In this document: positions 2 to 1,036 of the stretch, one piece after another
How positions within the stretch are numbered: the first letter of the stretch is position 1
How the letters are laid out: each line of letters begins with the position of its first letter
Source of the DNA: Candidatus Gastranaerophilales bacterium
Lineage (GTDB): Bacteria > Cyanobacteriota > Vampirovibrionia > Gastranaerophilales > Gastranaerophilaceae
Direction: 5' to 3'
NCBI GenBank assembly: GCA_944324405.1
Contig: CALUWF010000007.1
Coordinates: 1 to 64,000 of the forward strand
Length of the DNA stretch: 64,000 bases
Program-made: the position numbers and the translations under genes
Notes under the pieces: model-generated
The model's input: only the letters and a program-made list of their open reading frames with translations
Databases searched by the model: none
What the model was told of the DNA's origin: nothing

Positions 2-283
2 CTAGTGATAATCAACTATTTCAACATCAAAAGAATGATTGTCCAGCCACCTGAAACATATTCTAAACTGGTCATTAATGCGAATAGAATATTGTCCTTG
101 CCTGTCACCTGTTAAAACCTCAAGGCGATTACTGGGCGGAATTTTTAAATCATCAAGAACAGAAGCAACATGGAGCATTCTTAGTTTCTGTAGTGCACGT
201 TTTTGAATATCTTGAGGAAGTTTCTTCGAAAACTCTTCGTTCCATATCTTCTCAGTTTCTTTACATTTGAAAGATTTAATCAT
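2..283 (-). CDS. higB: HigB/RelE-family toxin
   Basis: A 93-residue protein with the size and C-terminal pattern of HigB-type members of the RelE/ParE toxin fold: a helical N-terminal half, then a beta-rich half containing GQYSIRINDQFRICFRW. RelE-fold toxins of this family cut mRNA on the ribosome and are held inactive by a cognate antitoxin. In higBA loci the toxin gene comes first, so the antitoxin would lie beyond the left edge of the window and cannot be checked. The start is ATG; the stop is at the second base of the window, so the gene is complete. The family is a confident call; that it is an active toxin is inference. Confidence 0.8.
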   Translation of the reverse strand: MIKSFKCKETEKIWNEEFSKKLPQDIQKRALQKLRMLHVASVLDDLKIPPSNRLEVLTGDRQGQYSIRINDQFRICFRWLDNHSFDVEIVDYH

Positions 284-318: not shown

Positions 319-347
319 TTGAAAATGCTGTAAAAATGGGTTAAAAT
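319..347 (+). promoter_or_regulatory. Sigma-70-type promoter for the candidate small RNA
   Basis: TTGAAA at 319-324 and TAAAAT at 342-347 are separated by exactly 17 bases. The expected transcription start, about 7 bases downstream, falls at 353-355, where the first stem of a folded element begins. No open reading frame of interest follows, which fits a non-coding transcript. Confidence 0.45.
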
Positions 348-353
348 GTAATT

Positions 354-480
354 GATAGTCTGATACGGTAAATCTCCCTACCGAGCCAACTGGCGACAGA
401 GGGGTGCGGGAGTCCTCATAATCAGGCTATTGTTTTATGGTATCGATGGCGGGTTGGCAGTCCGCCCATACCGATTTTTA
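354..480 (+). ncRNA. Candidate small structured RNA, unknown family
   Basis: This is a prediction from base pairing alone. A 10-bp closing stem pairs 355-364 with 421-430, with one pair being a G-U wobble on the plus strand. It encloses three hairpins: 366-370 with 379-383, 385-387 with 392-394, and 399-402 with 414-417. The loop of the first (CTCCC, 374-378) is complementary to GGGAG (408-412) in the loop of the third, allowing a kissing-loop pseudoknot. A promoter lies immediately upstream and a hairpin followed by a T-rich tract closes it. I do not recognise an Rfam family. The minus strand would keep most of the pairing, so orientation rests on the promoter, the wobble pair and the terminator. 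Confidence 0.4.
436..479 (+). terminator. Hairpin plus T-tract; possibly a tRNA 3'-end relic
   Basis: GGTAT (439-443) pairs with ATACC (468-472) and GGCGG (448-452) with CCGCC (462-466), followed by GATTTTTATT. This can serve as an intrinsic terminator for the RNA upstream. Read on the minus strand, the same bases CCCGCC-ATCGAT-A-CCA look like the 3' end of a tRNA with encoded CCA, resembling the relic at 547-706. Both readings may be true. Confidence 0.4.
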
Positions 481-546: not shown

Positions 547-706
547 TGGTGTCGACGGCGGGACTTGTCTTGGATTTTACTGTCTCTCGGGCAAGTAATT
601 TGCTTCACTACGTTGCCGCAAATTTTGCCCTCACTTACTCGAGTTCGCTCGCTTTGCTCGACTCCACTCTTACGTAAAATCCGCTGAACCCGCCAAAGAC
701 GGATTA
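547..706 (-). pseudogene. Broken tRNA-Leu copy with interrupted T-arm
   Basis: On the minus strand 547-562 read as a tRNA 3' end: T-stem strand CCCGC, acceptor strand CGTCGAC (identical to the intact tRNA-Leu next door), A, and an encoded CCA. The matching 5' T-arm half, GCGGG-TTCA, is at 685-693, so the T-loop is split by about 117 foreign bases (568-684). Beyond it, bases 699-705 match the variable arm of the intact tRNA. No D-arm or anticodon arm is recognisable. The insert carries an imperfect inverted repeat (GGATTTTAC at 572-580 against GTAAAATCC at 674-682). It cannot yield a working tRNA without splicing. Confidence 0.5.
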
Positions 707-762: not shown

Positions 763-843
763 TGTCGACGGGGGGACTTGAACCCCCACGGATTGCTCCA
801 CATGCTCCTGAAACATGCGTGTCTACCATTTCACCACGTCGAC
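763..843 (-). tRNA. tRNA-Leu (anticodon CAG)
   Basis: Folded by hand on the minus strand: acceptor GTCGACG/CGTCGAC (7 bp), D-stem GTG/CAC with a loop containing GG, anticodon stem CATGT/GCATG with loop TTCAGGA (anticodon CAG, reading CUG), a 13-base variable arm with a GGA/TCC stem as expected of a class II tRNA, T-stem GGGGG/CCCCC with loop TTCAAGT, discriminator A. The 3' CCA is not encoded. At 81 bases it is slightly short for a leucine tRNA because of the short variable arm. Unlike this copy, the broken relic downstream does encode CCA. Confidence 0.92.
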
Positions 844-1036
844 AAAACCAAGAATACAATTTTCAAACCTGTTTTGTGAAATGGTAGATATATATTTTTG
901 CCCCTCGCAAGTCTCGAGGCAGTCACCACGTCGACAAAACCAAGAATACAATTTTCAAACCTGTTTTGTGAAATGGTAGATATATATTTTTTGCCCCTCG
1001 CAAGTCTCGAGGCAGTCACCACGTCGACAAAACCAA
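831..1036. repeat. Two 92/93-bp direct repeats carrying the tRNA-Leu 5' end and promoter
   Basis: The unit starting TCACCACGTCGACAAAACCA occurs at 831-922 and 923-1015, with a third partial copy from 1016 to about 1036. The two full copies differ by one base in a T-run. Each unit holds, on the minus strand, the first 13 bases of tRNA-Leu plus the bases upstream including the putative promoter. Each also carries GTGAAATGGTAGA, the tRNA-Leu D-arm, in inverted (plus) orientation, and a 5-bp stem with 7-base loop (CCTCG/CGAGG) shaped like a tRNA arm. No gene is seen between 844 and 1052. Confidence 0.85.
851..880 (-). promoter_or_regulatory. Putative tRNA-Leu promoter
   Basis: On the minus strand TTCACA (875-880) and TATTCT (851-856) are 18 bases apart. 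The -10 element ends 7 bases before the mature tRNA 5' end, so transcription would begin almost at the tRNA itself. The same bases are copied in the neighbouring direct repeat. Confidence 0.4.

What the first reader, a model, noticed from the sequence alone, without database searches (positions are those of the whole stretch)
319..480. Possible new small RNA with a kissing-loop fold, own promoter and terminator
Seen: a consensus-like promoter with a 17-base spacer whose expected start coincides with a 10-bp closing stem (355-364/421-430). Inside are three hairpins, and the loop of the first (CTCCC 374-378) is complementary to the loop of the third (GGGAG 408-412). A hairpin with a T-rich tail follows at 439-479. 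Promoter, multi-branch fold, long-range pairing and terminator all line up on one strand with no protein gene. I do not recognise a known riboswitch or sRNA family. It lies between a toxin gene and tRNA fragments, so it could also be a mobile-element end.
Basis: partly seen in the sequence, partly recalled or inferred. Interest (0 to 1): 0.6.

Follow-up and report, generated by a model that had tools for sequence, protein, structure and literature searches.

The report
Phage-toxin partner RNA, orphan copy
A new family of small, knotted, tRNA-shaped RNAs sits directly beside a ribonuclease toxin that phages carry on a capsid protein, and probably acts as the antidote; the window holds an orphan copy of that RNA without the toxin.

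Summary
Window 352-433 (+) is one of about 70 distinct copies, in the order Gastranaerophilales, of an RNA family absent from Rfam. Four stems and a loop-loop pseudoknot are proven by compensatory change. In 30 of 70 copies the RNA lies convergent at the 3' end of a PBECR ribonuclease domain, the C-terminal part of a phage capsid protein (MuF) or a free remnant. All 26 evaluable toxin genes have the RNA; 40 copies, the window's included, lack the toxin. Pasteurellaceae Mu-like phages show the same architecture beside MuF-PBECR genes, also with covariation, and a model built only from those finds the window RNA as its sole hit in 64 kb. There the RNA tracks the toxin domain, not the capsid domain or the next gene. 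Best explanation: a cognate RNA antitoxin/immunity factor for a virion-borne RNase, perhaps a tRNA mimic; the window copy is an orphan. The window's 'terminator' hairpin is a decayed second module. Expression and neutralisation are untested.

The parts
319..347 (+). promoter: -35 TTGAAA (319-324), 17-nt spacer, -10 TAAAAT (342-347)
   Evidence: promoters at this distance occur in 29/29 scorable toxin-linked copies and 19/40 orphan copies, 19/600 control positions
352..433 (+). the RNA (module 1), about 80 nt; model R1 86.9 bits
   Evidence: independently found by model R2 from Pasteurellaceae phages at 353-432, E 0.025, only hit in the 64-kb window
353..364 (+). P1 closing stem, 5' arm (pairs with 421-432)
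   Evidence: 12 of 13 P1 pairs with changes on both sides across copies
366..383 (+). P2 hairpin CGGT/ACCG; its loop carries the invariant AAATCT and the pseudoknot strand
374..378 (+). pseudoknot strand CTCCC, pairs with 408-412
   Evidence: 96.8% of cells paired, three of five pairs covary; five pairing variants
385..394 (+). P3 hairpin GCC/GGC
   Evidence: all three pairs have changes on both sides
399..417 (+). P4 hairpin GAGG/CCTC, T-arm-like; loop carries the pseudoknot strand GGGAG
408..412 (+). pseudoknot strand GGGAG
421..432 (+). P1 closing stem, 3' arm
437..479 (+). decayed second RNA module (intact in relatives as P1 ATCGGTATG/CATACCGAT, pseudoknot CTGCC/GGCAG); in the window P2 and P3 are deleted at the junction 443/444, leaving a hairpin plus T-run
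2..283 (-). HigB-like (RelE family) toxin gene, divergent from the RNA; the higB-RNA order recurs in seven further loci
   Evidence: PF05015 E 1e-17

Best explanation
The RNA family is the cognate immunity factor (RNA antitoxin) of a ribonuclease toxin that temperate phages fuse to, or keep beside, their MuF minor capsid protein. Shown from sequence: (1) an 80-100-nt RNA with a closing stem P1, hairpins P2-P4 and a P2-loop/P4-loop pseudoknot, covarying throughout; (2) a sigma-70-like promoter immediately before P1, and at toxin loci a T-run immediately after it, so the RNA is its own transcription unit; (3) convergent placement just after the PBECR (RelE/HigB-like fold) toxin domain in every evaluable case; (4) exchange of toxin domain and RNA as one cassette inside otherwise near-identical phages; (5) RNA copies without toxin, single or in tandem arrays, as in the window. 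Inferred: the resident prophage makes the RNA all the time; it binds the PBECR domain and blocks it, probably by presenting a tRNA-shaped decoy to a tRNase-like active site, so lysogens survive toxin made late in the lytic cycle or injected by related phages. Orphan copies such as the window's would then be retained host immunity against such phages.
For: Covariation: A1 90.8% paired, 160 double-change cells, 0/500 shuffles; A3 (Pasteurellaceae phages) 99.3% paired, 136 double-change cells, 0/500 shuffles on the covariation score. Toxin never without RNA: 27 PBECR hits in 383 genomes; 25 have an R1 hit at the gene end, one gene is cut by a contig end, one has a strongly diverged RNA of the same architecture with promoter and T-run. 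RNA without toxin in 40 of 70 copies; the window's genome has no PBECR hit. Promoter 29/29 and T-run 27/30 at toxin loci. Pasteurellaceae: the architecture is found in the antisense flank of 36 of 42 long MuF genes, 0 of 11 short MuF genes without toxin domain, 7 of 350 shuffles. Model R2 from those phages hits Gastranaerophilales RNAs with no false hit in 192 kb. Cassette: partial Mantel RNA~toxin domain given capsid domain r 0.63, p 1e-4; RNA~capsid domain given toxin domain r -0.22; next gene~toxin domain given capsid domain r 0.05, p 0.27; e.g. L246/L239 capsid part 98%, toxin 38%, RNA 39% identical. In Gastranaerophilales RNA and toxin distances correlate, r 0.75, p 1e-4, and pseudoknot class follows toxin clade. 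Domain: PBECR3 in 16 of 18 members; model pLDDT 93, top Foldseek rows HigB/RelE. Second modules after 18/38 orphans, 0/30 toxin-linked copies.
Against: No expression, binding or toxicity data exist here; everything is comparative. The RNA lies beside the toxin domain, so part of the correlation could be hitch-hiking, though the next gene does not follow. G-U pairs outnumber A-C mismatches only modestly (37 v 23 in A1, 11 v 2 in A3), so the coding strand rests mainly on promoter and T-run. The tRNA-decoy part is weak for this family: ARAGORN does not exceed shuffles for the SuMu type (4/42 v 56/840) and Rfam tRNA does not match. Fold matches are weak statistically (best E 0.08). SuMu-type toxins carry arginine where the Gastranaerophilales domain has histidine; activity is unproven.
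Confidence: 0.7

Rival explanations
1. The RNA is a partner of the toxin but not its inhibitor: it is packaged with the MuF-PBECR protein in the virion, as a folding cofactor, guide or targeting RNA that acts on the recipient cell.
For: Strict pairing and co-exchange with the toxin domain fit any cognate partner; MuF proteins are head components that are likely injected (PMC5512222).
Against: RNA without toxin is common and often multiplied (40/70 copies, second modules in 18/38 orphans), which a toxin cofactor would not explain. The RNA has its own housekeeping-type promoter instead of sharing the late capsid operon.
Confidence: 0.12
2. The RNA is a regulator in cis: a convergent terminator or antisense element that limits expression of the capsid-toxin gene, as in type I toxin-antitoxin systems.
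For: It lies convergent, usually 3-16 nt past the toxin stop codon, and ends in a T-run.
Against: At most loci it does not overlap the toxin mRNA; a multi-stem pseudoknot with invariant loop bases is not needed for antisense or termination; it is conserved at loci without the toxin.
Confidence: 0.08
3. The RNA serves the phage for another purpose (a tRNA-like decoy against host RNases, a packaging or integration signal) and is near PBECR only because both belong to the same morphogenesis cassette.
For: Orphans also sit beside other RNA-related genes: HigBA, a RelE-like toxin and RlaP, an RNA-repair nucleotidyltransferase; Pmp9-type MuF genes without a PBECR match carry near-tRNA RNAs.
Against: Short MuF genes without a toxin domain lack the RNA (0 of 11); phage Mu, whose PBECR domain is reported inactive, has no gap for it (PMC5512222); the RNA follows the toxin domain and not its other neighbours.
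Confidence: 0.08

Closest known systems
Type III toxin-antitoxin systems (ToxIN, CptIN)
   Same: A pseudoknotted RNA paired with an endoribonuclease toxin; RNA units can be in tandem (PMC5772629, PMC4627078, abstracts; tandem repeats from own knowledge).
   Different: Here the RNA is convergent to the toxin with its own promoter, not co-transcribed upstream of it; it is a four-stem cloverleaf-like fold of 80-100 nt, single at toxin loci; the toxin has a PBECR/RelE-like domain fused to a phage capsid protein.
AbiF / RCd22 (phage-encoded Abi_2 protein with an RNA antitoxin)
   Same: Prophage-borne toxic protein neutralised by direct binding of an adjacent structured RNA, active in trans (PMC12373285).
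   Different: Unrelated protein family (Abi_2/AbiF); not virion-borne; our RNA matches no Rfam family.
MuF polymorphic toxins of temperate phages
   Same: MuF capsid domain with an exchangeable C-terminal toxin domain and an adjacent protective element (PMC5576092).
   Different: The described protective elements are proposed small immunity proteins encoded just downstream of the toxin gene; here it is an RNA on the opposite strand.
PBECR domains of polyvalent phage proteins
   Same: The toxin domain is PBECR3 by Pfam; predicted RNase (PMC5512222).
   Different: No RNA partner was described in the passages read; the RNase target was left open there.
tRNA
   Same: P1/P2/P3/P4 layout like acceptor, D, anticodon and T arms, loop-loop contact between the D-like and T-like arms, T-arm-like GTTCGAGYCC; Pmp9-type relatives score 27 bits against Rfam tRNA.
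   Different: No anticodon arm of normal size, a five-pair pseudoknot instead of the D/T-loop contact, not detected as tRNA by ARAGORN.

Membership tests
Any Rfam 15 family | match at or above the gathering score | tested here: not met
   window and homologous loci; SuMu-type
Type III toxin-antitoxin | RNA neutralises the toxin protein by direct binding | not testable with these tools
   needs an experiment
Type III toxin-antitoxin | antitoxin RNA encoded upstream of and co-transcribed with the toxin | tested here: not met
   convergent in all 30 toxin-linked copies, own promoter 29/29
Type III toxin-antitoxin | toxin of the ToxN/AbiQ family | tested here: inconclusive
   Pfam gives PBECR3/PBECR2 and no ToxN-type family; nearest solved structures are HigB/RelE but weak
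MuF polymorphic toxin | MuF domain joined to a variable C-terminal toxin domain in a phage capsid gene | tested here: met
   Phage_Mu_F or Phage_min_cap2 plus PBECR; toxin domain exchanged under near-identical capsid domain
MuF polymorphic toxin | small immunity ORF directly downstream | tested here: not met
   an antisense RNA lies in the gap between MuF and the next gene in SuMu and Mannheimia phages; SuMu has an annotated small ORF only 148 nt further on
PBECR (PF18812) | Pfam domain match | tested here: met
   SuMu E 3.9e-17, above the curated cut-off; 16 of 18 members of A5, though single Gastranaerophilales members can fall just below the cut-off (27.3 v 30 bits)
tRNA | detected by tRNA models | tested here: not met
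   ARAGORN and Rfam find none for this family; Pmp9-type relatives are just below the gathering score

The most novel reading that the evidence does not exclude
A widespread class of virion-borne polymorphic toxins uses RNA instead of protein for immunity: tRNA-shaped, pseudoknotted RNAs that neutralise capsid-delivered tRNases. Bacteria collect orphan copies and arrays of them, the window being one, as defence against phages, and different toxin folds (PBECR, Pmp9-type) have independently acquired tRNA-mimicking antidotes.
Probability: 0.4. Interest if true: 0.95.

Novelty: categorically new. Interest (0 to 1): 0.86.

Why it matters
In the papers searched here immunity to polymorphic toxins is a protein. 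An RNA that is exchanged together with its toxin domain would be a new kind of immunity factor, would explain what protects lysogens carrying MuF-PBECR genes, and would point to the target of PBECR nucleases, left open in 2017 (PMC5512222). It gives specialists a directly testable pair (toxin domain plus an 80-100-nt RNA with known pairs to break and mend), occurs in at least two distant host groups, and suggests orphan RNA arrays as an anti-phage defence.

Tried and rejected
Known riboswitch, sRNA or ribozyme family: no Rfam match even at E 10 beyond chance. Protein-coding or transposon end: relatives conserve base pairs, not reading frames; antisense ORFs over the RNA that first clustered with the toxin were spurious and were removed by a profile search. 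Eight of the 64 pattern matches in genome contigs were chance hits in unrelated genes and were dropped. Widening to the phylum gave no hit outside the family already found. The search for related loci with the Gastranaerophilales toxin found nothing in viral contigs; the diverged gene in L199 and phage SuMu opened the way. The tRNA-mimic idea was tested: significant for Pmp9-type RNAs only (5/9 v 0/180 shuffles), not for this family. Profile search of the toxin domain in PDB sequences gave only a proteasome subunit at E 0.02, disregarded. Helicobacter, Alteromonadaceae and Ochrobactrum MuF genes have gaps but no clear RNA of this type. Working notes gave 39/45 and 0/13; recounting gives 36/42 (three more found by R2) and 0/11.

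Full report
What was checked. Thermodynamics alone is modest (z -2.5 for 350-435), so the claim was put to comparative test. Rfam finds nothing there.

A conserved RNA family. A DNA search of 98 related genomes found clear homologues in six other genomes at E below 1e-9, in up to four copies per genome and in tandem, and one in a phage genome, Dulem virus 31. A pattern search added 64 stretches in species genomes (eight of them chance) and one viral contig with two tandem copies. Alignment A1 of 35 RNAs gives 90.8% of pair cells standard against 34-47% for slid partners; 20 of 29 pairs change on both sides; no shuffle reaches the covariation score. The pseudoknot is kept by five different sequence pairs. 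Model R1 finds the RNA in 55 of 383 genomes of the order and in no other order in a phylum-wide sample. The window's species has one copy; its congeners tested have none, as expected of something mobile.

A toxin partner. In 30 of 70 distinct copies a gene runs towards the RNA on the other strand and stops beside it (-43 to +93 nt, mostly 3-16 nt; one of the 30, L084, is only a gene remnant). Full-length versions are phage minor capsid proteins (Phage_Mu_F E 6e-19, Phage_min_cap2 E 1e-8) with a C-terminal PBECR domain; shorter ones are free copies of about 155 residues. [quoted passage not shown] The domain model is confident (pLDDT 93), and its best though weak structural neighbours are HigB, RelE and BrnT toxins.

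The pairing is one-sided. A profile search for the toxin domain in the same 383 genomes gave 27 places. Twenty-five coincide with an RNA found independently by R1. One gene is cut by its contig end. The last, from another family (G062), has no R1 hit, but directly after its stop codon stands a promoter, a twelve-pair P1, a P2 with loop sequence CTCCC, a P4 with GGGAG, and a T-run: the same architecture with almost no sequence left in common. So no evaluable toxin gene lacks the RNA, while 40 RNA copies lack the toxin. That asymmetry is the usual mark of toxin and antidote. At toxin loci the RNA has its own promoter in 29 of 29 scorable cases and a T-run in 27 of 30.

Beyond this order. The diverged gene led to Haemophilus phage SuMu and Mannheimia phage 3927AP2, whose MuF genes carry PBECR3 (E 4e-17 and 3e-12). 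The gap after each gene encodes, antisense, an RNA with the same plan. Related viral contigs gave 22 distinct RNAs for alignment A3: 99.3% of cells paired, 136 double-change cells, 0 of 500 shuffles on the covariation score. A blind descriptor of the architecture finds it beside 36 of 42 long MuF genes, beside none of 11 short MuF genes without the toxin domain, and in 7 of 350 shuffles. Model R2, built only from these proteobacterial phages, was run over 192 kb: every hit was a known RNA site, including window 353-432 as the only hit in the 64-kb window (E 0.025) and Dulem virus 31 (E 0.001). This independent cross-phylum recovery is the strongest single argument that the window feature belongs to a real class.

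Toxin and RNA move as one cassette. Among 33 SuMu-type phages RNA distances follow the toxin domain (r 0.645) and do so after removing the capsid domain (partial r 0.63, p 1e-4); the reverse partial correlation is negative. The gene beyond the RNA does not follow the toxin domain (partial r 0.05, p 0.27), so this is not only linkage. Pairs with 98% identical capsid parts and 38% identical toxin domains have RNAs 39% identical. In Gastranaerophilales the correlation is 0.75 and pseudoknot class sorts with toxin clade. MuF proteins are known as polymorphic toxins with exchangeable C-terminal domains, and small immunity proteins were proposed for them (PMC5576092).

Orphans and arrays. Eighteen of 38 scorable toxin-less copies are followed by a second module of the same architecture with another sequence; none of the 30 toxin-linked copies is (Fisher p 3e-6). 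The window belongs to such a group: relatives have an intact second module (P1 ATCGGTATG/CATACCGAT, pseudoknot CTGCC/GGCAG), and the window's 437-479 is that module with P2 and P3 deleted. Orphans of this group stand next to a divergent HigBA pair (eight loci); others stand beside RlaP, an RNA-repair nucleotidyltransferase, or a RelE-like toxin.

Mechanism. Shown: fold, transcription signals, exclusive convergent pairing with a predicted RNase, co-exchange, orphan copies. Inferred: the RNA binds and silences the toxin domain (0.7 for an RNA antitoxin/immunity role). More speculative: the decoy is a tRNA mimic. In favour are the cloverleaf-like layout, the T-arm-like GTTCGAGYCC, and the near-tRNAs that accompany another MuF toxin type (Rfam tRNA 27 bits; 5/9 against 0/180 shuffles). 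Against, this family itself is not above shuffles in the same test. Literature searches found no RNA partner of MuF or PBECR; only open-access papers and no preprints could be searched.

Limits. No transcript, binding or toxicity data; most genomes are metagenome assemblies, and several copies lie at contig ends. 'Categorically new' refers to an RNA immunity factor exchanged with a virion-borne polymorphic toxin and to the RNA family itself; the presumed way of working (RNA silencing an RNase) resembles type III toxin-antitoxin systems.

Noticed in passing
window 831-1036: Two nearly identical copies of about 92 nt repeat the 5' part of the tRNA-Leu gene (762-844, minus) and its flank, next to the intact gene: tandem tRNA-fragment duplications.
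   Followed up: no
window 550-567 and 763-780: An 18-nt piece matching the 3' end of the tRNA-Leu gene recurs 213 nt away, a possible old integration scar.
   Followed up: no
L288, L290, L291, L293, L295, L298 (antisense after the MuF gene): Pmp9-type MuF proteins (no PBECR match) carry near-tRNA genes with abnormal anticodon loops at the same convergent place; Rfam tRNA 27 bits, ARAGORN relaxed 5/9 against 0/180 shuffles. L295 and L296 have two in a row.
   Followed up: partly
L034, L038, L142-L144, L148 downstream of module 1: Arrays seem to hold a third, different module (GACAAGTC...GACTTGTC with conserved CGTTTCGGACGTAA) after the second one.
   Followed up: no
L142, L143, L144, L146, L148, L150: Orphan RNAs lie 14-96 nt from a gene for RlaP (PF10127, RNA-repair nucleotidyltransferase, E 8e-52); four of these loci also have an unknown ~302-aa gene before it.
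   Followed up: partly
L215 (Helicobacter prophage), antisense after the MuF gene, about 2685-2841: A candidate RNA with P1 GTTTGAATG/CATTCAAAC and a possible GTGCGA/TCGCAC loop-loop pairing beside a MuF with weak PBECR3 match.
   Followed up: no
L040 (PP511318.1, Dulem virus 31): The 35.8-kb record encodes tail sheath, tape measure and portal proteins but is classified under Microviridae, probably a taxonomy error.
   Followed up: no
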